From: Actinomycetota bacterium
Lineage (GTDB): Bacteria > Actinomycetota > Acidimicrobiia > Acidimicrobiales > JAJPHE01
Direction of reading: 5' to 3'
DNA: 39,918 bases
Assembly: GCA_027315345.1 (NCBI GenBank)
Contig: DAHUYE010000082.1
Span: 1 to 39,918 of the forward strand
Both the position numbers and the translations under genes were made by a program. Shown in pieces: positions 1,700-11,953 of the stretch; the stretch's first letter is position 1; each line of letters starts with the position of its first letter. The notes beneath the pieces were generated by a model. The model did no database searches. It was not told where the DNA came from and was given only the letters and a program-made list of their open reading frames with translations.

Positions 1700-2227
1700 T
1701 CAACTCTGCCGGAAGAACGGGTTGGCCGGCTCGGCCGCCGCCGCCTGCACCGTCGCCAACTCGGGTTCGCCCCGGGCGCCGCGAGCCAGGGCGCGGGCGG
1801 TGGCGTCCCGGTTGTTCTCGAAGACCGCCTCCTCCGAGTCGGCGGCCGGGTCGACCCAGACGGCGGCTATCAGGAGCAGGTCATCGGCCAGCTCGGCCGG
1901 GATGGTGCCGGCCGCTACGGCGTCGACCACTCCGCAGGCCACCCCGGCCTGGGCCGCCCCCCAGGTCAGATTGGCGTGGGTCGTGCCCGCTTCCAGGGCC
2001 GCCTTGTTGACGAACAGGGTGAGGGGCTTGACGGCCACGTCGGGGCGGATGACGGTGACAAAGGCGGCGTGGCCGGGCCGGGGCATGGCCAGGGCGGTGG
2101 CCCAGGCGGCTTCCACCGGTCCCCCCTTGGCCCCCAGGACGGTGTTGATGTGGGCGGCGTTCGGACCTGAACCGCTGAAGGCCTCCCCGACCTGGGTGGC
2201 CCGGCTCCTCGGGGCGGACGGGCTCAA
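1700..2227 (-). CDS. Formaldehyde-activating enzyme (Fae) homologue
   Basis: 175 residues resembling Fae over nearly the full length. Fae condenses formaldehyde with tetrahydromethanopterin. Visible matches: the N-terminal VGEAFSGSG block, AAHIN, the FVNKAAL lysine segment, the GVVDAVAAGTIP helix, a DDLLLIAAVWV strand, NRDATARAL, and a GEP...PF tail like that of methylotroph Fae. The active-site His is kept (H26), but the usual H-I-D reads H-I-N (N28). The start is TTG 2227, whose TTGA overlaps the stop of the upstream oxygenase, so translation is probably coupled. Established: Fae is a C1-metabolism enzyme in methylotrophs and methanogens. Inferred: this homologue handles formaldehyde made by its partner. 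It could instead be a Fae-like paralogue with another carbonyl substrate or pterin, since no methanopterin genes are in view. Confidence 0.8.
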   Translation of the reverse strand: MSPSAPRSRATQVGEAFSGSGPNAAHINTVLGAKGGPVEAAWATALAMPRPGHAAFVTVIRPDVAVKPLTLFVNKAALEAGTTHANLTWGAAQAGVACGVVDAVAAGTIPAELADDLLLIAAVWVDPAADSEEAVFENNRDATARALARGARGEPELATVQAAAAEPANPFFRQS

Positions 2228-3087
2228 GCGGCCGGCGGATCGGGGTAGGGCTCCGTCCGCCCGTAGCGGTTCATGCGCAGCATCTCGCTGCCCATCGTTC
2301 CCGCCTTGGTGTCATAGGCGAGCAGTCCGACCAGTCGGGCCCGCTCCCCTTGGACCGGGCTGACCCGGTGCAGCGAATGGCGGCCCTCGAAGACGAGCAG
2401 AGTGCCCGCCGTCATGGGCAGGGTCACCACCGGGGAGGTGTCGGTGCCGTTGAGCACGCCCGCCACCGCGTCGTAGCGCGGATCCTCAGCCGAACGGATG
2501 AGGGGGGCCACCTCGAAATCCCCGCCCGCCTCGGACGGCTCGATGGCCAGGGAGACCACGAAGTCGGTCTGGTCGAAGTGCCACTGCAGTTCGTCTCCTT
2601 CCCCCATCACGGCCAGATTGAGGGCTCCGAACGGATCGGCGTACCGGTGGATCGGCCCTCTCCCCAGGATGGCCTCGATGAGATTTTTCATCGGATCCCA
2701 TTCGTAGAGAAGGCGCAGCAGCGATGTGCGGGGGATCAGGTCGTAGGCCACCGCTCCCAGGGCGTAGGGACCGAGCCAGCGGGTGGGATGGCCGGCCGGG
2801 GCGTCCGCGTCGGGCCGGTTCAGGTAGGCGGTGCCGATCCCGGAGGACCGGTAGGCCCGCGTGGCCACCGCCCTGGCGTCGGCCACCAGGGCGCTCACTC
2901 CGGCCCGGGTGAGGAAACCGGACAGCTCACAGGCCCCGGTGGCGGCCAGCTGGGCCCGCCAGCCGACCAGAGCGGCCCGGGCCTTGTCCCCATCGAGGTC
3001 GAGGACCGGGTAACGGTCCAGGTCGACCAGCTCCTCCAGGTCCGGGAGGCCGCCCGCCTCCGGGTCGGTCACGGCCGGTGTGGTCAT
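2224..3087 (-). CDS. 2-oxoglutarate/Fe(II) oxygenase, HalD/BesD-like with HxD triad
   Basis: 287 residues with a double-stranded beta-helix oxygenase core. The metal triad is readable: H170 and D172 in WHFDQTDF, and H240 in GRHSLHRV. R249 or R251 is placed to bind 2-oxoglutarate. The pattern (HFD...GGDFE...GTLLVFEGR.SLHRVSP) resembles the HalD/BesD group acting on free amino acids. BesD-type halogenases replace the Asp with Gly, so this protein should hydroxylate or demethylate rather than halogenate. ATG 3087 is preceded by TAGTCT seven bases upstream, suggesting a leaderless message. The gene is first in an operon with the Fae homologue (stop/start overlap TTGA) and diverges from an esterase gene only 17 bp away. 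Substrate unknown. Confidence 0.72.
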   Translation of the reverse strand: MTTPAVTDPEAGGLPDLEELVDLDRYPVLDLDGDKARAALVGWRAQLAATGACELSGFLTRAGVSALVADARAVATRAYRSSGIGTAYLNRPDADAPAGHPTRWLGPYALGAVAYDLIPRTSLLRLLYEWDPMKNLIEAILGRGPIHRYADPFGALNLAVMGEGDELQWHFDQTDFVVSLAIEPSEAGGDFEVAPLIRSAEDPRYDAVAGVLNGTDTSPVVTLPMTAGTLLVFEGRHSLHRVSPVQGERARLVGLLAYDTKAGTMGSEMLRMNRYGRTEPYPDPPAA

Positions 3088-3104: not shown

Positions 3105-4046
3105 GTGGCCCTCACAGAGATCCGGGTCCCCCTGCCGGAGGGGGTCAGGATGCCGGACAACCGGGTCAACCTCATCCTCCCGGCGGATTACGGGTCCCGG
3201 ACCGACCTGGCCTTTCCCGTCCTCTATCTGCTGCACGGAGCCGGTGACACCTACGCCTCCTGGGCGGAGTCGACCGACGTGGTGGACCTGGCCTCCGCCT
3301 TCCCCATCCTGGTGGTGATGCCCGATGCCGGCTGCCGGTCGCAGGCCACCTGGTACTCGGACTGGGTTGAGGGCAGCTGGCAGGCCGAGACCTACGTCAC
3401 CGAGGTCCTGCCCCGCTATCTGGCCGCCCACTACCGGGTGTCCCCGGGCCCGGCGGCCATAGCCGGCCTGTCCATGGGCGGCTTCGGGGCCATGTCCCTG
3501 GCGGCGCGTCACCCCGGGCGGTATGTGGCGGCCGCTTCCTTCTCGGGGGTGCTCGACACCATGTGGGGGGCGCCCGGCACCGGGGACCTGTTCGCCCAGC
3601 TGAACGCCGAGCACGGCACACCCGACCAGCGGGTGTGGGGTGACCAGGCCGCTGATGCCGAGGTGTGGCGGGCCCACAACCCCACCGATCTGGCCGGCTC
3701 CCTGGCCGGCGTCGAGCTCATGGTGGCGGCGGGCACGGGCACCCCGGGCGGGCCGGAGGGCGACACCGACGACGGGGACGGCTACGGGCTGGAGCAGGGG
3801 GTGCGGGCCATGAACGAGGCCTTCGTGGCCGCCCTGGAGAAGGCCGGCCTCCCGGCCCAGGTCGACCTGTACCAGGGGGGCTACCACGGCTGGCCCTACT
3901 GGCAGGCGGGAATTCGCTGGGCCCTCCCGCAGCTGGCGGCCATGCTGGGGCCGCCCACCCCGGTCTCCGCGCCGGGCGGGCTCACGCCGGCCGGGCACAC
4001 GCCGGCCGGGCACACGCCGGCACCGCTGGGGGAGGGAAGGACCTGA
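3105..4046 (+). CDS. Alpha/beta-hydrolase, putative esterase family
   Basis: 313 residues of the esterase-D/antigen-85-like alpha/beta-hydrolase type (putative esterase family). LYLLHGAGD is the oxyanion-strand segment and GLSMGGFGA the nucleophile elbow holding the catalytic Ser. The expected late His is in GGYHGWPYW, and an acidic partner should lie between. There is no signal peptide, so the enzyme is probably cytoplasmic. GTG 3105 was chosen because homologous sequence (EIRVPLPEGVRMPDN) starts at once; ATG 3150 is possible but would cut that strand. The last 25 or so residues are low-complexity, made by a 15-bp tandem repeat (TPAGH units), and are unlikely to matter for catalysis. The stop overlaps the next gene's start as TGATG. 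Confidence 0.8.
   Translation: MALTEIRVPLPEGVRMPDNRVNLILPADYGSRTDLAFPVLYLLHGAGDTYASWAESTDVVDLASAFPILVVMPDAGCRSQATWYSDWVEGSWQAETYVTEVLPRYLAAHYRVSPGPAAIAGLSMGGFGAMSLAARHPGRYVAAASFSGVLDTMWGAPGTGDLFAQLNAEHGTPDQRVWGDQAADAEVWRAHNPTDLAGSLAGVELMVAAGTGTPGGPEGDTDDGDGYGLEQGVRAMNEAFVAALEKAGLPAQVDLYQGGYHGWPYWQAGIRWALPQLAAMLGPPTPVSAPGGLTPAGHTPAGHTPAPLGEGRT
3981..4025 (+). repeat. 15-bp tandem repeat, three units, in the esterase 3' end
   Basis: Three 15-bp units with consensus CACACGCCGGCCGGG; the first and last are slightly diverged. The length is a multiple of three, so the repeat stays in frame and encodes TPAG-H units at the extreme C-terminus. It is a candidate length polymorphism between strains. 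Confidence 0.85.
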
Positions 4047-4529: not shown

Positions 4530-6782
4530 ATGAGAGCTCTCGCCACCTGGTGCTTCCGGCACCGCCGCCTGGTTCTGGGCGCCTGGATCGCCATGCTCAT
4601 CCTGGTCTCCGTCATCTCCAATGCCGTCGGCACCAAGTACTCGAACAACTTCCAGCTACCCAACACGCCCTCGACCGAGGCGCTCAAGCTGCTGCAGTCC
4701 AACTCCCCCAAGCTGGCCGGGGACAACGAACAGGTGGTCTTCCAGACCTCAGGCGGCCTTCTGGTCACCAGCCCGCCGGTGGAAGCGGCCATCAATGCCG
4801 ACCTGGCCCAGCTGGCCCTGCTTCCCAACGCCAGCCGGGTGGTTTCGCCCTTCAGCGCCTTGGGGGCCCAGCAGATCAGCGCCGATAAGACGGTCGCCTT
4901 CGCCACCCTCACCTTCGATAAGGAGCCTCAGACCCTGTCCCAGGCCGAGGCCGTCCGCATGGTCTCCACGGCCACCTCGGCCGACCGGCCCGGGCTCAAG
5001 GTGGCCGTGTCCGGCCAGCTGGCCGGGGAGGCGACCCGGCCCGGCTTCGGCGGGAGCGGGCTCGGGATCCTGCTGGCCGGTGTGGTCCTGGTTCTGTTCT
5101 TCGGCTCGGTCTTCGCCATGGCTCTGCCCCTGCTGTCGGCCCTCCTCGCCCTGGGCACCGCTATCGGGCTGGTGACCATGCTCAGCCACGTCCTGGGCAT
5201 GCCCCAGTTCGCCCCCGAACTGGTCATCCTCATCGGCCTGGGGGTCGGGGTGGACTACGCCTTGTTCATCGTCACCCGCCACCGCCAGGGCCTCATAGCC
5301 GGGCGCAGCGCCGAGGAGGCGGCGGTGGGAGCGGTCAACACCTCGGGCCGGGCCGTGCTCTTCGCCGGCATGGTGGTCTGCATCGCCCTGATGGGCATGT
5401 TCGCCCTGGGCGTCACCTTCCTCTACGGCCTGGCCGTGGCTGCCTCCATCGGCGTGCTGCTCACCATGATCAGCGCCCTCACCCTGCTGCCGGCCATGCT
5501 CGGCTTCATCGGGCCCCGCATCCTGTCCCGCAAGCAGAAGCGGGATCTGGCCGCCAACGGCCCCCGCATCGTCGGGGCCGGTTCGACCGGCTTCTGGCCC
5601 CGCTGGGCCTCCTTCGTCCAGGTCCGTCCGGCCGTGCCCGCCGTGGTGGCCCTGGTCGTGATCGGCGCCATCATCCTGCCCTTCTTCAGCCTGAGGCTGG
5701 GCAATTCGGACGAGGGCAACGACCCGGTCGGGACCACCACCCGGACCGCCTACGACATGCTGGCCCAGGGCTTCGGCCCCGGCTTCAACGGTCCGCTCAT
5801 GCTGGTGGCGGACAGTCCCGCCCTGTCCCATCTGGCTCCTGGAGTGGGCTCGGCGGCCAATCCTCTGAATGCGGTCCTGACCCGGCTCTCGGGCGACATC
5901 AAGGCCCAGCCTGACGTGGCCCAGGTGGCCGCCCCTCTAATCCTGCCGGCCAAGTCGGGGGGCGAGATCGCCCTTCTCAACGTCTACCCCAAGGGGTCGC
6001 CCCAGGCCGCCAGCACCGGCTCCCTCATCAACCAACTGCGCTCGTCCGTCATCCCGGCTGCCCTGGCCGGAACCGGCGTCCGGGTCTACGTGGGCGGCAG
6101 CACGGCCATCTTCGTGGACTTCGCCCACGTCCTGACCGGAAAGCTCCCGTTGTTCATCGGCCTGGTCGTGCTCCTGTCGTTCCTGCTCCTCTCGGTGGTG
6201 TTCCGCAGCCTGGCCGTGCCCCTCACCGGGGCGGTCATGAACCTGCTGTCCATCGGCGGCGCTTTCGGTCTGCTGACGGCGGTCTTCCAGTGGGGCTGGT
6301 TGGGCAACGTCTTCGGTGTCAACCGGCCCGGACCCATCGAAGCCTTCCTGCCCGTGATGCTCTTCTCCATTCTCTTCGGGCTGTCGATGGACTACCAGGT
6401 CTTCCTGGTCACCCGCATCCATGAGGAGTACCTCAAGAGCGGGGACAACCGCCTGGCCGTGCGCAATGGACTGGCCGCCACCGGTAAGACCATCACTGCC
6501 GCGGCGGTGATCATGATCCTGGTCTTCGGCTCCTTCATACTCGGAGGCCAGCGGGTCATCAAGGAGTTCGGGGTCGGCCTGGGCGGCGGCATCCTCATCG
6601 ACGCCGTCATCATCCGCATGACCATCGTCCCCGCCGTGATGCAGCTCATAGGGAGGTCCAACTGGTGGTTCCCCGCCTGGCTGGACCGCCGGCTGCCCCG
6701 GCTGTCGGTCGATCCAGCCTTGGACCCGGATGCCTCCCCTGCCCGACCTTGGCCGGTGCCGATCGAGCAGGCGTCGGTCTGA
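4530..6782 (+). CDS. MMPL-family RND transporter
   Basis: 750 residues with the two-fold RND/MMPL architecture. One helix near residues 12-35 is followed by an extracytoplasmic loop, then a block of about five helices (170-345). A second helix near 370, a second loop and a second helix block (540-715) complete it. Each repeat carries the MMPL signature with an Asp-Tyr pair expected to relay protons: D242-Y243 in GVDYALFIVTRHR and D621-Y622 in SMDYQVFLVTRIH. Actinobacterial MMPL proteins export lipids or other hydrophobic molecules. ATG 4530 follows GGTGGGG; a TACCCT box at 4514-4519 could be the -10 of a nearly leaderless message. The gene stands alone after the thioesterase (64-bp gap) and converges with the pilin operon. 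Confidence 0.9.
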   Translation: MRALATWCFRHRRLVLGAWIAMLILVSVISNAVGTKYSNNFQLPNTPSTEALKLLQSNSPKLAGDNEQVVFQTSGGLLVTSPPVEAAINADLAQLALLPNASRVVSPFSALGAQQISADKTVAFATLTFDKEPQTLSQAEAVRMVSTATSADRPGLKVAVSGQLAGEATRPGFGGSGLGILLAGVVLVLFFGSVFAMALPLLSALLALGTAIGLVTMLSHVLGMPQFAPELVILIGLGVGVDYALFIVTRHRQGLIAGRSAEEAAVGAVNTSGRAVLFAGMVVCIALMGMFALGVTFLYGLAVAASIGVLLTMISALTLLPAMLGFIGPRILSRKQKRDLAANGPRIVGAGSTGFWPRWASFVQVRPAVPAVVALVVIGAIILPFFSLRLGNSDEGNDPVGTTTRTAYDMLAQGFGPGFNGPLMLVADSPALSHLAPGVGSAANPLNAVLTRLSGDIKAQPDVAQVAAPLILPAKSGGEIALLNVYPKGSPQAASTGSLINQLRSSVIPAALAGTGVRVYVGGSTAIFVDFAHVLTGKLPLFIGLVVLLSFLLLSVVFRSLAVPLTGAVMNLLSIGGAFGLLTAVFQWGWLGNVFGVNRPGPIEAFLPVMLFSILFGLSMDYQVFLVTRIHEEYLKSGDNRLAVRNGLAATGKTITAAAVIMILVFGSFILGGQRVIKEFGVGLGGGILIDAVIIRMTIVPAVMQLIGRSNWWFPAWLDRRLPRLSVDPALDPDASPARPWPVPIEQASV

Positions 6783-6809
6783 GGCGCCGCCCGGATGAGG
6801 AGGGGATTG

Positions 6810-8309
6810 TCATGCCGGGATTTCACGCTCGTAGGCGATTCCAACATGGAACGCGCCCACACCTCCCCCTAGGGGGGCCCCGGGGATGGAACTGGCCGGA
6901 CTGTAAGTCAAGCTGAAGTGCTCGCTGGCCTGGACGGTACCTGCGTAGACCTGACCGGTGCCGGTCACGTTCTCGCTGAAGCTGGCGGTACAGGGCGTAT
7001 AGATGAAGGTGCTGATCGCACCGGTCGGGGAGCCGAAACTGACGTGCTCGCTGGCCGTGATATTGGGGGCGTTGCCCGAGGAGCACGCCGAGGCGTCGCT
7101 ATACGGGACTATGAGGTAAAGCTGATGTGGCGCCCCGTCAGCGGAGGACACCGAGAAGTTGTGGCTCATGGCGATGGGGCCATCGCTGAAGATGGCAAGG
7201 TTCGTGCTGAGGGCCAGCTGTCCCGTGAGGTTGAGCGAGCAACCACCAGTGACGTAGGCCAGCTGGGGAGTCGATTGGGAGGCCAGAGCGGCCAGGGAGG
7301 AGGCGGCCACGTTGCAGTCGCTGTACTGGTTGATGGTGTATCCGGCCGCCTGCCAGGCTGCCTGGTCGTAGTTGAGCTGAGGCATGGGCTGCGAGGGGGG
7401 CGGAGGGGATGGGGCACTCTGGACAACTTGGCCTCCGACATTGCCGCCGCTGCCGCTCGTGCACCCGTTGCAGGTGGTGGCCGCGGTGGCATCGTGGCCG
7501 ATCTGAGAGTTGCTGGACATGCTGATCGAGCCCTGGGACGAGGTGACATCGTGGCCGACGGAGGCATGGCTGGACAGGCTCACCGGCCCGACCGACCAGA
7601 CATCCTGGGCGACGGTCGAGTTGTTTCCGAGCGAGACTCCGCTGCCACCATCTCCGCCGTCCCCGCTGCATCCCGCAGGCGGGTTCGCCTGGCTGTAGAT
7701 GCTCCCGTAGACGGTGGTGTGCTCCTGCAGGTTTGCGTATCCGTTGGTGTAGATGTTGGCATCATTGCCACTATGCCCGTAAATCGTCGGGCTTTCGCTG
7801 ATGCTCAGGCTGCAGTTGGAGTAAATGGCATTGTCGAAGGATCCCCATGGGGACATCTGCACCAGGGCCTGCATGGCTCGGGCCCCGTACAGTCTGGCAT
7901 TGACAGTAGCGGTGGAGGTCAGCTCCGCAGCCATCGGGTTGGTGGTTAGAGGACACGTTAACGGCGGCCCGGACGGAGGATATTCCCCGTAGTAGGTGAT
8001 GGAAACGGTGTAGCTGACGGGCGCCGGCGCAGTCGAGAGAGCACCCGATATGGGTGTGCAGGGAAGGCTGGCGAGCGGCGTGGTCTGAAGGGTGGCATAG
8101 GCCGCATTCAGGCCTGCTTCAGCGGCGTCCACCGACTGGACCTGGCGACGCTGGAGCGCGCTCCCATCGATGGTGTGGACGGCCAAACCCAGTGCCACTC
8201 CGCTCAGCGTGATGGCGACTAGGGCAACCATCATGGCCGCCACCAGAGCGACACCAGCTTGGTCGCCTCCGCGTGCACCGACAATTCGCTGCAGTAGCCG
8301 TTTCGGCAC
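6810..8309 (-). CDS. PilX-like minor pilin/pilus assembly protein
   Basis: About 499 residues. A short basic leader is followed by a pilin-like hydrophobic helix (GVALVAAMMVALVAITLSGV) and then QRRQVQSVDAAEAGLNAAY, the usual pattern of PilX-type N-termini. The Glu at mature position 5 of major pilins is absent, as in many PilX proteins. The large remainder is Ser/Gly/Asn-rich, with short recurring motifs such as SISESPTIYGHSG, VSLSSHASVGHD and ISMSSNSQIGHD. These suggest a parallel beta-helix or adhesin-like surface. Several Cys residues could form disulfides outside the cell. GTG 8309 is preferred because GAAGGAAAG lies just upstream; the frame is open to 8366, overlapping pilW. Third gene of the operon. 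Confidence 0.72.
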   Translation of the reverse strand: MPKRLLQRIVGARGGDQAGVALVAAMMVALVAITLSGVALGLAVHTIDGSALQRRQVQSVDAAEAGLNAAYATLQTTPLASLPCTPISGALSTAPAPVSYTVSITYYGEYPPSGPPLTCPLTTNPMAAELTSTATVNARLYGARAMQALVQMSPWGSFDNAIYSNCSLSISESPTIYGHSGNDANIYTNGYANLQEHTTVYGSIYSQANPPAGCSGDGGDGGSGVSLGNNSTVAQDVWSVGPVSLSSHASVGHDVTSSQGSISMSSNSQIGHDATAATTCNGCTSGSGGNVGGQVVQSAPSPPPPSQPMPQLNYDQAAWQAAGYTINQYSDCNVAASSLAALASQSTPQLAYVTGGCSLNLTGQLALSTNLAIFSDGPIAMSHNFSVSSADGAPHQLYLIVPYSDASACSSGNAPNITASEHVSFGSPTGAISTFIYTPCTASFSENVTGTGQVYAGTVQASEHFSLTYSPASSIPGAPLGGGVGAFHVGIAYEREIPA

Positions 8310-8341
8310 GGGTCTTTCCTTCGGCTCAGTTTGCATTGGTC

Positions 8342-8947
8342 CTATCCAGGCGGCACGCTGGCGCACACGGTGGCGGGATAGCCGTATTCCGTGTTTCGTC
8401 CAGTCACCGAGGCTTGCAACTCGGCGGCCGAGGCGGGGTTACTGCTGTCGTTGATCACCAGATCGATGTTGAGTATCCGTTGGCCGTAGTCGGGTTGGGA
8501 GGTGTCGAGGCTGAAAGCTGGCACAACCGGTGAGACGATCTCGTTCACCACGTTGGTTGCCACCACGCGCCAGGAGCTCACCAGGCCATCGGTTTGCCAA
8601 GTCGACGACCAGCTCCGGGTGACAAGGTTTTCGTTCTGAATTTCCCATTGGACGCAGCGCTCGACGGAGTTGTATTGGGTGTAGACCAGCAGTGACATGT
8701 TGGGCGGGCTCCCTGTCGACGGGTCGTAGAGCAAGTTGGCGGAGCGGACTTGGCGGTCGATCTCGCTGACGGCAAGCCGAGCCTGGTCGTTGTTCGCGCT
8801 GCGTCCTGCCACCCGACCCTCGGTGGTCTGAGCAGACGCCAAGACGGAAACCACCATACCCAGGGCGAGGACCGTGAGGGCGCTCGACACGACCAATTCG
8901 ATCAGGGTGAAACCGCCTTCATCCCGGTGGCAGTTGGTGCTACGCAC
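8342..8947 (-). CDS. PilW-like prepilin
   Basis: About 201 residues with a classical type IV prepilin N-terminus: the short leader ends in EGG, followed by FTLIELVVSSALTVLALGMV. Cleavage is expected after the second Gly, leaving Phe 1 and Glu 5, both standard for prepilin peptidase. The rest matches PilW-type minor pilins: DQARLAVSEIDRQVRSANLLYD is the usual post-helix segment. GTG 8947 gives a normal nine- to ten-residue leader and overlaps the stop of the preceding PilV-like gene by eight bases, implying coupled translation. An upstream TTG at 9001 would give an unusually long leader. The product probably primes or initiates pilus or pseudopilus assembly at the membrane. Confidence 0.8.
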   Translation of the reverse strand: MRSTNCHRDEGGFTLIELVVSSALTVLALGMVVSVLASAQTTEGRVAGRSANNDQARLAVSEIDRQVRSANLLYDPSTGSPPNMSLLVYTQYNSVERCVQWEIQNENLVTRSWSSTWQTDGLVSSWRVVATNVVNEIVSPVVPAFSLDTSQPDYGQRILNIDLVINDSSNPASAAELQASVTGRNTEYGYPATVCASVPPG

Positions 8948-10778
8948 TGGGAGCCGCCGTGTACGTGGCGTTGGCTGTGATCGTTCCCAGATCGACGCCA
9001 ATGTTGAGGTCTGCGACGCTCGTGCCGCCGTAGGTAACCGAGTAGGCGATACTCCCCAGGATGGGCGACGCCGAAGTTGCTGAAGCTTGTGCCCTGGTGC
9101 AGGGACTAGCGCAGCCGGATCCGGCCGGATCGTTGACGGCGGTTCCCCCCGTGGTGAGCTGGGGTGTGATCGTTATAACGAGCGCCTGGCCGGTGTTCTC
9201 GTAGTTGGGATCGCTGATCGATATGGGGGCCACCGGCAGGTTCCGCGGCCCCCCGGGGGCGACCGACAAGCTGGTATAGCCGGCTCCGTTCCAGTAGCTG
9301 ATGGTCCCCGACGCTTGCACGCTTGGAGCGGCGGCACCGACCCCGGCCTCGGAAGACACCGAGTCCGAGAAGCCGCTGAGCTGAACGAGATAGCCCGACC
9401 ATCCGGCTGGCACGTCGGAACTACTGAGGTTGGCCGGCAATCCGGCCAGCTGAACGGCACCCATCCCCCGTGCGGTGGAGAGATGGACACAACCGTCCCC
9501 GCTGGTCTGGGTGCAGTACGTCCCACCGGAGGTCAGGTGACGTGTGGCGAAGGTCCGGGCTGACCCGGAGCCAATCGAGCTCAGCAGGGCATTGCCGAGG
9601 TCCAGCGATGAATTGGCCCATAGATCGGCGTTCATGCTCGCGGCCTGGCTCTGGGTGGCGGAGGATGAACCACACGGCTCTTGAGTCGTCTCATAGGTAC
9701 CACCCGGATCGGCGCAGTAATTCGGTGGGTTGATCGATGCCGAAATGGTGGCATTTGCCTGCGCCGGGTCGGGGCCTCCTGTCGACACGGTGAGGGTGTC
9801 ATTGGTACCTGTGCCCGTGGCGGAAAGCGAAGCCGGGGCCTGCGGGGCGGTGCTCACGGACTGGTATGAAGACAACGACGCCGGGTCACTGTTGGCTGAC
9901 GCAGACACCTGGCTCCCACCGGCGGTCTGCAAGGTGCCACCGGTCAAGAGCAGACTGGCCCCGGACGTCTGAGCCAGGCTGTGGACGGCCGAGACCTGCT
10001 CGATCTGGGCCGTCGAGGCAGCTTGGGCAGGGCTGATGCTGGCGTGGTCCAATGCGATGCCCTGGATGGCTGGAACCGTGCTCGAAGCGGGCGTGACGGT
10101 TACGTGGCCACCCACGTCGGTGGAGTTGGCGTAGAGGAACGGCTCACACGGTGCGGCAAAGGGATGGGTGGCAGTTGACAGGCACCCGGCCGGCGAATAG
10201 ACCAGGGTCTGAGTAGTCAGACTGTGAGCCAGGCCACCCTTGGCGGGATTGGCCCAGCTCACGAGCACAGTGACCAGATAGACGGTGGCCGGGGTCGTTT
10301 GATCGTAGGTGGGGTAGACGGAAACCGTGTAGGTGGTCGGACCGATCTGCACGGTATGACGGTGGGGCACCAAGGGCGCCACCGCCGTGCCTGACGATGT
10401 CGGGATCTCCTTACCGGCGTAGAAGTAGGTGGTTACGCCGCCCGAGGTGGTGCTGGTGATATTGGTGTCGGTAGACCAGGTGGGATCATTCGAAGGGTCA
10501 AGGCCATTGGCGACCACGGCAAAGGGCAGAGCCCGAACCTCCTCCATGGTGCGGTCGGCCAGGGAGGTGGCGGCTTGGCTCTGGCGGGCGAAGGATACGT
10601 AGAGAAGCGAGTTGGTGAGGGTGGAGAGCAGGGCGACCAAGACGAAGGCGATGACGGTGATTGCCACCATGACTTCGATGATGCCGATGCCGTCATCCGG
10701 TCGCCCACTGGCGGGCTTTTGTAGGCGGCCTGGGTCGCCACCGAGCCATTGCCAACGGAGCCATGTACGCAGGCTCAT
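8940..10778 (-). CDS. Large PilV-like prepilin
   Basis: 612 residues. After a leader of about 30 residues comes a prepilin helix GIGIIEVMVAITVIAFVLVA with Glu in the position-5 context, then a Ser/Arg segment (ARQSQAATSLADRTMEEVRAL) typical of PilV. PilV proteins are usually below 250 residues; this one carries an extra domain of about 450 residues rich in Ser, Thr and Ala, with paired Cys residues and Ig-like strand patterns (TVSVYPTYDQ, VYLVTVLVSW). It may be a tip or adhesion subunit. ATG 10778 has an excellent ribosome site, AGGAGGTGGC. First of three co-directional pilin genes; no ATPase, platform or peptidase gene is in view. Confidence 0.75.
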   Translation of the reverse strand: MSLRTWLRWQWLGGDPGRLQKPASGRPDDGIGIIEVMVAITVIAFVLVALLSTLTNSLLYVSFARQSQAATSLADRTMEEVRALPFAVVANGLDPSNDPTWSTDTNITSTTSGGVTTYFYAGKEIPTSSGTAVAPLVPHRHTVQIGPTTYTVSVYPTYDQTTPATVYLVTVLVSWANPAKGGLAHSLTTQTLVYSPAGCLSTATHPFAAPCEPFLYANSTDVGGHVTVTPASSTVPAIQGIALDHASISPAQAASTAQIEQVSAVHSLAQTSGASLLLTGGTLQTAGGSQVSASANSDPASLSSYQSVSTAPQAPASLSATGTGTNDTLTVSTGGPDPAQANATISASINPPNYCADPGGTYETTQEPCGSSSATQSQAASMNADLWANSSLDLGNALLSSIGSGSARTFATRHLTSGGTYCTQTSGDGCVHLSTARGMGAVQLAGLPANLSSSDVPAGWSGYLVQLSGFSDSVSSEAGVGAAAPSVQASGTISYWNGAGYTSLSVAPGGPRNLPVAPISISDPNYENTGQALVITITPQLTTGGTAVNDPAGSGCASPCTRAQASATSASPILGSIAYSVTYGGTSVADLNIGVDLGTITANATYTAAPSA

Positions 10779-10900
10779 GCCACCTCCTGTAACGGAACAT
10801 CGGCTAGTTGATCACCGTCCTTGAGGAGAGGCGTCGCCCCCCTTGTTCTCTACCCTCCCGCTCGAAGCTCTCCCAGGCTAGGAGCACCCAGCTTCCTCAT

Positions 10901-11953
10901 TCAGGGATGCAGGCTGGGTAGGTGGGGCCGGGGCAGGAGCTCCAGCCACGTGGTCCCAGGCGCCAGCGTAATTGTGCCGGCCGTTCCCGTCAGCTGGACG
11001 GGCTGGGCGATGCTCGGTCGGGTCCAGGTCCCCTGCACTTCCTGACCCCCCCGCAGGACCCACACCGTCCCCGAGCCGACCAGGTGGACGTAGGGGTCCT
11101 GGTTCCCGGCCGCATCGAAGATCCCAGTCGGGCCGATGACCACCGACAGGATGACCACGTTGGCCGCCGAGTTGCGGCTGCCGTCGGCGTTGATGTCCGG
11201 CTGGCCGTTCTGGGTCCGCAGCCACACGCCCTGCGACGGGCTCCAGGTCCACCGGGCCGAGGAGAAGACGGAGAAGTCCATGTAGGCGTGGCTGAGCGGG
11301 CGTGCCACGCCGCCCTCGGGAGCGGCCGAATAAGCGAAGAGGCGGGGCGGAGGATCAGGGGCGGCTCCGGCGGCCAGCCCGGCCGCCCACAGGGCCGCGG
11401 TGGAGGCGAAGACGTTGTGCGGGATCGGCCTGGAGTCGATCCGGTGGAAGGCAGCCACCCCGGCGTCGTAGGACAGCAGGGTGGCAGTAGAGGACGCCTG
11501 GACCGGGGCAATCTCCCCTGTGGCGGCGCCGGAGTAGGCGAAGATGCCCCCGCCCAGCTCGCGCAGCAGGGCGGCATCGACCGGCCGGGCCGAGCGGATG
11601 GGGCCGACCTGAGGGGCCTGGTGAGACTGGAAAGTAGCGAAGAGCCGGGTCAGGCCTCCCTCCACCAGGGCCTCGGCCACCATGTCGGCGTCGTCCAGGC
11701 CCATCTGGGGGAAGGAACCGGCCACGTTGTCGACCTTGACCGATAGGGCCGGGCGCCCGGCGGCGGCCGGATCGGTGACCGGCAGGCCGGTGAGGGGATA
11801 GACGGCCTGAGCCGTGGTGGTGGGGGCCACCGAGGTCGGGGCATGGACCGCCGCGGGCCGGCTGGGCGGCAGGGAGTGGGCGCAGGCCCCGGCCAAGACA
11901 CCCGCCACCGGGAGAGCCAGCAGCCCGGCCACCCGGGTCCGGTTCATTTTCAT
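10901..11953 (-). CDS. DUF3048-domain lipoprotein (YerB-like)
   Basis: About 350 residues from ATG 11953, chosen because GGAGGG precedes it and because it yields a clean lipoprotein signal: MKMNRTR, a hydrophobic core and the lipobox LAGAC. The mature protein fits the DUF3048 family (Bacillus YerB-like). It has an early PLTGLPV segment, then SVKVDNVAGSFPQMGLDDADMV, EGGLTRLFATFQ and VGPIRSARP, and a second conserved part around PYVHLVGSGTVWVLRGG. The family is extracytoplasmic and its function is not established. The frame extends upstream to 12025 but adds an unlikely polar leader. It lies 122 bp upstream of pilV in the same direction and could be cotranscribed. Confidence 0.85.
   Translation of the reverse strand: MKMNRTRVAGLLALPVAGVLAGACAHSLPPSRPAAVHAPTSVAPTTTAQAVYPLTGLPVTDPAAAGRPALSVKVDNVAGSFPQMGLDDADMVAEALVEGGLTRLFATFQSHQAPQVGPIRSARPVDAALLRELGGGIFAYSGAATGEIAPVQASSTATLLSYDAGVAAFHRIDSRPIPHNVFASTAALWAAGLAAGAAPDPPPRLFAYSAAPEGGVARPLSHAYMDFSVFSSARWTWSPSQGVWLRTQNGQPDINADGSRNSAANVVILSVVIGPTGIFDAAGNQDPYVHLVGSGTVWVLRGGQEVQGTWTRPSIAQPVQLTGTAGTITLAPGTTWLELLPRPHLPSLHP

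What the first reader, a model, noticed from the sequence alone, without database searches (positions are those of the whole stretch)
1700..3087. Coupled oxygenase-Fae pair: possible formaldehyde-releasing and -capturing module
A HalD/BesD-like 2-oxoglutarate oxygenase with a complete HxD triad (H170, D172, H240) overlaps a Fae homologue as TTGA. Iron/2-oxoglutarate enzymes that demethylate N- or O-methyl groups release formaldehyde, and Fae traps formaldehyde. Translational coupling suggests a 1:1 partnership. I know of no described system of this kind, and it is the best candidate here for something new.
Basis: inference. Interest (0 to 1): 0.75.

Follow-up and report, generated by a model that had tools for sequence, protein, structure and literature searches.

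The report
Conserved oxygenase and formaldehyde-activating-enzyme-like pair
Two overlapping genes, an iron oxygenase and a relative of the formaldehyde-trapping enzyme Fae, are a conserved partnership in a group of actinobacteria whose genomes seem to lack the cofactor pathway Fae normally serves, so the pair probably makes and handles a reactive aldehyde in an undescribed way.

Summary
An HxD-type Fe(II)/2-oxoglutarate oxygenase (2224-3087, minus) overlaps a Fae-family gene (1700-2227, minus) by TTGA. The pair is conserved: 22 of 80 Fae loci carry the oxygenase (21 adjacent), and of 247 genomes of the same class 34 carry the Fae and 31 of these also the oxygenase, 9 of them unlinked. The interpretation needs a correction, and its chemistry is unproven. 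This Fae is not the methylotrophs' enzyme: it lies outside the canonical clade, keeps the conserved His, Lys and Gln (103 of 103), but differs at 17 other near-fixed positions. Two tetrahydromethanopterin (H4MPT) markers are over cut-off in 0 of 247 class genomes; 28 of 28 genomes with canonical Fae in a comparison order have the marker tested there. Elsewhere the subfamily also sits in transporter/aldehyde-dehydrogenase clusters without the oxygenase. Best reading: the oxygenase hydroxylates carbon beside nitrogen or oxygen, and the Fae-like enzyme handles the resulting carbinolamine or (form)aldehyde with something other than H4MPT. Partnership is well supported; formaldehyde is inference.

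The parts
2224..3087 (-). Fe(II)/2-oxoglutarate oxygenase, HalD/BesD fold group, HxD...H triad H170/D172/H240, R251
   Evidence: AlphaFold2 model mean pLDDT 92.8; best solved matches HalB, HalD, BesD, HalA, lysine hydroxylase, Z 21.7-22.8
1700..2227 (-). Fae-family protein of a subfamily (called Fae-B here) found in this class without H4MPT markers; TTG start
   Evidence: tree; residues; no H4MPT marker over cut-off in the genome or its class sample
2224..2227 (-). TTGA: Fae-B start (TTG) overlapping oxygenase stop (TGA); translational coupling inferred
   Evidence: Sequence; overlaps of 4 or 1 bases possible in 18 of 21 adjacent pairs

Best explanation
The two genes form a conserved functional module (supported by conservation and co-occurrence). 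The oxygenase is a hydroxylase-type Fe(II)/2OG enzyme acting on a small, probably imported metabolite (inferred). It hydroxylates a carbon next to N or O, most simply an N-methyl or N-alkyl group, giving a carbinolamine that collapses to an aldehyde, most likely formaldehyde (inferred). The Fae-B partner, keeping the His/Lys/Gln positions of Fae but with an altered set of near-fixed residues, then takes over that carbinolamine or aldehyde and passes it to an acceptor other than H4MPT, perhaps tetrahydrofolate or the product amine itself (inferred). Co-translation would keep enzyme levels matched.
For: Pair in 22 of 80 Fae loci, 21 directly adjacent, with 4- or 1-base overlaps possible in 18 of 21. 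In 247 class genomes, 31 of 34 Fae carriers have the oxygenase (31 of 42 oxygenase carriers at E<=1e-10 have Fae), Fisher p about 9e-27 without correction for kinship; in 9 of the 31 the genes are not neighbours. Within genus g12, four genomes have both and at least four have neither. In a quick tree of 51 oxygenases those of the pair fall in one group (SH-aLRT 89) in which 43 of 44 rows come from Fae-B genomes (a second close but Fae-less copy, L140 of G200, was left out as partial). HxD triad invariant in 20 of 20. H26, K75, Q93 kept in 103 of 103 Fae-B. H4MPT markers not found. In L054 both genes lie in one run with what I read, without a family search, as a peptide-type ABC transporter, which suggests an imported substrate.
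Against: No substrate or product is known. In other lineages Fae-B sits without the oxygenase beside ABC transporters, semialdehyde-dehydrogenase-like, aldo/keto-reductase or enolase-superfamily genes, with no demethylase that I recognised, so Fae-B may act on something other than formaldehyde. Of 40 chosen Fae-B genomes 31 have no oxygenase homologue and 5 only a distant one. The neighbours of the pair in the class vary. In the Fae tree paired and unpaired rows are interleaved (8 changes of the label 'pair'). Fae-B is not confined to genomes without H4MPT: one copy (L188, genome G351) lies in a genome that also has a canonical Fae and a cyclohydrolase. The nearest fold relatives are enzymes solved with free lysine-like amino acids, not demethylases.
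Confidence: 0.4

Rival explanations
1. Fae-B is a pathway enzyme (hydro-lyase, lyase or isomerase) that acts on the hydroxylated product of the oxygenase itself, giving a semialdehyde; formaldehyde is not involved.
For: Fae-B positions that are nearly fixed but differ from canonical Fae (N28, P49, H84, W89, W124, N169 among 17). Semialdehyde-dehydrogenase-like genes recur beside Fae-B in three lineages: Rhizobiales L064, Streptomyces (annotation), Caballeronia (annotation), with an aldo/keto reductase in the first and third.
Against: The Fae positions H26, K75, Q93 and much of the framework are kept; no reaction of this kind is known to me for the fold (recall).
Confidence: 0.35
2. The oxygenase is a plain amino-acid hydroxylase of the lysine-hydroxylase type, and Fae-B is a loosely associated detoxifier.
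For: Closest folds are HalB, HalD, BesD, HalA and the lysine hydroxylase 7jsd. Gene order around the pair varies.
Against: Correlated presence and absence, also when not neighbours, and stop/start overlaps in most adjacent pairs.
Confidence: 0.15
3. Ordinary Fae working with H4MPT that was overlooked in these genomes.
For: Passes the NCBIfam equivalog-domain cut-off for Fae (137.7 against 118.05). One Fae-B copy (L188) is in a genome that has the cyclohydrolase, though that genome also has a canonical Fae.
Against: Methenyl-H4MPT cyclohydrolase over cut-off in 0 of 247 class genomes and 0 of 20 other Fae-B genomes chosen from the 80 loci; beta-RFAP synthase over cut-off in 0 of 247 (1 and 3 class genomes show hits below cut-off). 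The searches work: the first finds 28 of 28 genomes with canonical Fae in a comparison order, and both find archaeal controls.
Confidence: 0.05

Closest known systems
[quoted passage not shown]
   Same: Family, length, invariant H/K/Q positions and glycine framework
   Different: Separate clade; 17 positions conserved differently, among them D24 to N28, N45 to P49, Q79 to H84, F84 to W89, F119 to W124, H164 to N169; no H4MPT markers over cut-off in the class genomes
Further Fae paralogues of genomes with canonical Fae (T2 here); Fae2 and Fae3 of Methyloversatilis (PMC5023235, passages read) may or may not be the same, not tested
   Same: Divergent Fae paralogues of unclear function
   Different: T2 rows are a third clade; where that column is present (5 of 10 rows) they lack the conserved His (E 4, M 1), and they live in genomes with the cyclohydrolase
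HalD/BesD/HalB/HalA halogenases and the lysine hydroxylase 7jsd
   Same: Fold (Z 21.7-22.8, rmsd 3.1-3.4, 225-236 residues aligned) and weak sequence kinship
   Different: HxD instead of the halogenases' missing carboxylate; 12-18% identity in those rows; whether lysine is the substrate was not tested
GSH-dependent Gfa and thiol-dependent formaldehyde dehydrogenases (PMC8879981, passages read)
   Same: Formaldehyde handling without H4MPT
   Different: Different protein family; the mycothiol-dependent dehydrogenase model TIGR03451 finds only hits below cut-off in the window's genome (best 236.8 against 512.9)

Membership tests
Fae (EC 4.2.1.147) | Sequence family PF08714/TIGR03126 | tested here: met
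   166.5 and 137.7 bits, both over cut-off
Fae (EC 4.2.1.147) | Conserved His, Lys, Gln of the Fae core (functional roles recalled) | tested here: met
   H26, K75, Q93 in 103 of 103 Fae-B rows and 29 of 29 canonical rows
Fae (EC 4.2.1.147) | Residues fixed in canonical Fae | tested here: not met
   17 columns conserved differently; among them D, N, Q, F, F, H in 29 of 29 canonical rows are N, P, H, W, W, N in 102-103 of 103 Fae-B rows
Fae (EC 4.2.1.147) | H4MPT pathway in the genome | tested here: not met
   MCH and beta-RFAP synthase over cut-off in 0 of 247 class genomes, the window's own included
Fae (EC 4.2.1.147) | Catalysed condensation of formaldehyde with H4MPT | not testable with these tools
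   Needs enzymology
Fe(II)/2OG oxygenase (hydroxylase type) | HxD...H triad plus distal Arg | tested here: met
   H170, D172, H240, R251 invariant in 20 of 20; model matches solved 2OG oxygenases
HalD/BesD halogenase | Loss of the Asp iron ligand (halide site) | tested here: not met
   D172 invariant; loss of the protein carboxylate ligand on the way to BesD stated in a passage of PMC10187165
HalD/BesD group | Pfam PF23169 and fold | tested here: met
   35.7 bits over cut-off 26; top fold matches
Lysine hydroxylase (7jsd) | Lysine-binding residues | tested here: inconclusive
   Only weak profile similarity, 19.7 bits; the binding residues were not mapped
N-demethylating 2OG oxygenase | 2OG-dependent formaldehyde release | not testable with these tools
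   Needs enzymology

The most novel reading that the evidence does not exclude
A widespread, undescribed branch of the Fae family works without H4MPT as a carbinolamine/aldehyde-transfer enzyme. In this class of actinobacteria it receives its substrate directly from a dedicated 2-oxoglutarate N- or O-dealkylase, passing C1 units to tetrahydrofolate or another acceptor: an oxygenase-coupled C1-salvage route in bacteria not known as methylotrophs.
Probability: 0.25. Interest if true: 0.78.

Novelty: new variant of a known kind. Interest (0 to 1): 0.52.

Why it matters
Public records name members of this branch 'formaldehyde-activating enzyme' (seen in Streptomyces clavuligerus and Caballeronia; their own pterin genes were not tested), a name that implies an H4MPT route, while the 247 class genomes and 20 others tested here show none over cut-off. 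An oxygenase partner that co-occurs even when unlinked gives a concrete handle on what the branch does and makes it testable with two small proteins.

Tried and rejected
Considered and rejected: (1) chance adjacency: 22 of 80 loci and 31 of 34 genomes speak against it. (2) Halogenase: D172 is invariant. (3) Ordinary H4MPT-linked Fae: markers not found. (4) A wider conserved operon: an acyl-CoA-dehydrogenase gene lies beside Fae-B in some genomes (L194, L200) and beside the oxygenase in others (L197, L204, and L199 by clustering only), and short-chain dehydrogenases lie beside either. Both are huge families joined by single linkage, so I did not count them as partners. Citrate synthase and 2-oxoacid-dehydrogenase genes, and what I read without a search as purH, metF and malate dehydrogenase genes in L067, look like chromosomal context. 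(5) The esterase upstream on the other strand (3105-4046): no relative at 80 bits or more among the chosen ORFs of the other 97 loci, and S-formylglutathione hydrolase only 47.8 bits against a cut-off of 281.7. (6) Papers: ten searches listed, by title and start of abstract, nothing on Fae with a 2OG oxygenase; several lists were cut (30 of 565, 20 of 55, 10 of 579, 8 of 60, 25 of 545), and subscription journals are mostly not held. Of the papers, passages only were read of PMC5023235, PMC8153426, PMC4744692, PMC8879981 and PMC10187165.

Weak points: gene calls in other loci are mechanical. Both trees are quick ones; the careful Fae tree did not finish. At E<=1e-10 the oxygenase is in 42 class genomes; 11 of these lack Fae: 9 with a distant oxygenase (29-40% identity) and 2 with a close one (G107, G200). 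Calling the 9 distant is a judgement made after seeing the data. Fae carriers without oxygenase: G157, G100, G150 (G150 79% complete). 'Not neighbours' in the nine genomes rests on different contigs for eight of them (G064 has only an oxygenase fragment at a contig start) and on 276 kb of one contig for G003. Fisher's test ignores kinship. The Fae search was seeded by the window protein and kept the best 80 of 157 confirmed loci; several of those contigs are cut short. One search tested 20 and one search tested 40 genomes chosen by me (the 20 again, plus 20 others, two of which, L048 and L054, already held the pair). For the oxygenase tree I left out L007, L014, L060, L063, L140 (broken or partial; L140 is the Fae-less G200), L212, and repeat copies of the same genomes. 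In one search only 5 of the 10 T2 rows had letters at the N-terminal columns, and Fae-B was defined as all rows that are neither T1 nor T2.

Full report
Observation. The window carries, on the minus strand, a 287-residue oxygenase (2224-3087) followed by a 175-residue Fae-family gene (1700-2227) whose first start codon, TTG, overlaps the oxygenase stop as TTGA. Pfam places them in HalD (35.7 bits, cut-off 26) and Fae (166.5 bits, cut-off 27); NCBIfam TIGR03126 scores the Fae at 137.7 bits (cut-off 118.05). Each gene was found once in the genome.

Conservation of the pair. Of 80 Fae loci taken from named genome contigs (best 80 of 157 confirmed), 22 contain the oxygenase: 21 directly upstream on the same strand, and one (L054, a Rhodospirillales MAG) in the same run of genes but separated by what I read as ABC-transporter genes. 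In 18 of the 21 adjacent pairs the oxygenase stop and a possible Fae start overlap by 4 or 1 bases; the others are L048 (+7), L007 (broken oxygenase frame) and L063 (stop inside the match). In 247 genomes of the window's class (its own included), 34 carry the Fae and 42 the oxygenase at E<=1e-10; 31 carry both (Fisher p about 9e-27, kinship ignored). In 22 of the 31 they are neighbours (divergent in G154); in 9 they are not (G003, 276 kb apart on one contig; G015, G056, G064, G115, G142, G178, G182, G185, on different contigs). In genus g12, G055, G063, G102 and G165 have both and at least G067, G099, G126 and G130 have neither. Against this: G157, G100 and G150 have Fae but no oxygenase, G107 and G200 a close oxygenase but no Fae, and nine genomes a distant oxygenase (29-40% identity) and no Fae. 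In a quick tree of 51 oxygenases, those of Fae genomes fall in one group (SH-aLRT 89; 43 of 44 rows from Fae genomes, with the partial copy of G200 left out); the distant relatives lie outside it.

The oxygenase. An AlphaFold2 model from 20 sequences has mean pLDDT 92.8. Its best solved matches are HalD, HalB, the lysine hydroxylase 7jsd, BesD and HalA (Foldseek E from 6.6e-13; Z 21.7-22.8 over 225-236 residues, rmsd 3.1-3.4), at 12-18% identity. The intact HxD fits a hydroxylase; [quoted passage not shown] Sequence gives no substrate.

The Fae is not the methylotrophs' Fae. Methenyl-H4MPT cyclohydrolase (PF02289) is absent from the window's genome and over cut-off in 0 of 247 class genomes (one hit below cut-off); beta-RFAP synthase (TIGR00144), a pterin-biosynthesis marker, is over cut-off in 0 of 247 (three hits below cut-off). 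Of 20 further genomes with this Fae, chosen from the 80 loci, 0 have the cyclohydrolase. As a positive comparison, in 150 genomes of the order of L064 (titled Rhizobiales) 29 have a Fae over cut-off; the 28 with canonical Fae (224 bits or more) all have the cyclohydrolase, and the one with only the present subfamily (G247, 138 bits) does not. An exception to tell: G351, one of the 28, also holds a copy of the present subfamily (L188) besides its canonical Fae. In a quick tree of 138 Fae rows canonical Fae forms one clade (99) on a long branch, a second set of paralogues from the same order another (99), and the window's protein lies among the remaining rows, called Fae-B here; rows with and without the oxygenase beside them are interleaved. 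Comparing 29 canonical with 103 Fae-B rows, H26, K75 and Q93 are kept throughout, while 17 positions are conserved differently, among them D24 to N28, N45 to P49, Q79 to H84, F84 to W89, F119 to W124 and H164 to N169. That these are ligand-pocket residues is inference.

Other contexts of Fae-B. In freshwater actinobacterium L028 and similar loci it sits between a glycine-betaine-type ABC transporter and an enolase-superfamily enzyme, an aldehyde dehydrogenase and a 3-hydroxyisobutyrate-dehydrogenase-like gene, with an iron alcohol dehydrogenase gene further off. In Streptomyces clavuligerus it overlaps the betaine-binding-protein gene by 4 bases and is annotated 'formaldehyde-activating enzyme'. 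In L064 (Rhizobiales) and Caballeronia it is beside an aldo/keto reductase and a succinate-semialdehyde-dehydrogenase-like gene; in L013 its frame overlaps a zinc alcohol dehydrogenase nearest the NDMA-dependent/class III models, below their cut-offs. In 40 Fae-B genomes chosen by me, close oxygenases occur in 4 (two linked, two not), distant ones in 5, none in 31. So Fae-B appears to serve several pathways, and the oxygenase is its partner mainly in the window's class, with scattered cases in Myxococcota, Binatia and Rhodospirillales MAGs.

Mechanism. Shown: conserved gene pair, correlated presence, intact catalytic motifs, no H4MPT marker found in the class sample. Inferred: the oxygenase hydroxylates carbon beside nitrogen or oxygen, and Fae-B handles the carbinolamine or aldehyde that follows. 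Formaldehyde is the simplest candidate because Fae chemistry (recall) is condensation of formaldehyde with a pterin amine, but the semialdehyde-type neighbours elsewhere make a larger aldehyde nearly as likely. In the passages seen, PMC8879981 describes H4MPT-, H4F- and thiol-linked formaldehyde routes, the H4F condensation as spontaneous, and none with an H4MPT-free Fae; PMC5023235 reports wild-type-like growth of fae2 and fae3 single mutants on methanol and methylamine. Ten paper searches listed no work that joins Fae to a 2OG oxygenase (several lists were cut).

Verdict. Observation confirmed; partnership well supported; formaldehyde release and capture unproven; the H4MPT of textbook Fae is disfavoured.

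Noticed in passing
window 3105-4046 (+) and 2224-3087 (-): The oxygenase and a putative esterase (PF00756) are divergent with only 17 bases between the called starts, so one start is probably wrong or the promoters overlap; the esterase has no relative at 80 bits or more among the chosen ORFs of the other loci.
   Followed up: partly
L219 (Streptomyces clavuligerus plasmid) 7979-9531: Fae-B overlaps the gene of a glycine-betaine-type binding protein by 4 bases in an ABC-transporter/aldehyde-dehydrogenase cluster on a large plasmid. Sixteen S. clavuligerus plasmid records hold a match; the neighbourhood was seen in one.
   Followed up: partly
L054 and genome G416: A Rhodospirillales MAG has the oxygenase, apparent ABC-transporter genes and Fae-B in one gene run, plus a second oxygenase copy elsewhere (L213).
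   Followed up: partly
L188 (genome G351): A Fae-B copy in a genome that also has canonical Fae, a T2 paralogue and the H4MPT cyclohydrolase: a useful strain type for comparing all three.
   Followed up: no
L180-L187, L189, L191: Genomes with canonical Fae carry a third Fae clade that lacks the conserved His where that column is present; likely a different function.
   Followed up: no
L220 (Shinella plasmid) 5293-11427: A distant relative (37%) of the oxygenase is embedded in an ABC-transporter operon, suggesting that this oxygenase group acts on imported compounds.
   Followed up: no
window 6810-10778 (-): Three overlapping ORFs (6810-8366, 8342-9001, 8940-10778); by eye the second and third start like pilin/prepilin-type proteins. 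No family search was run.
   Followed up: no
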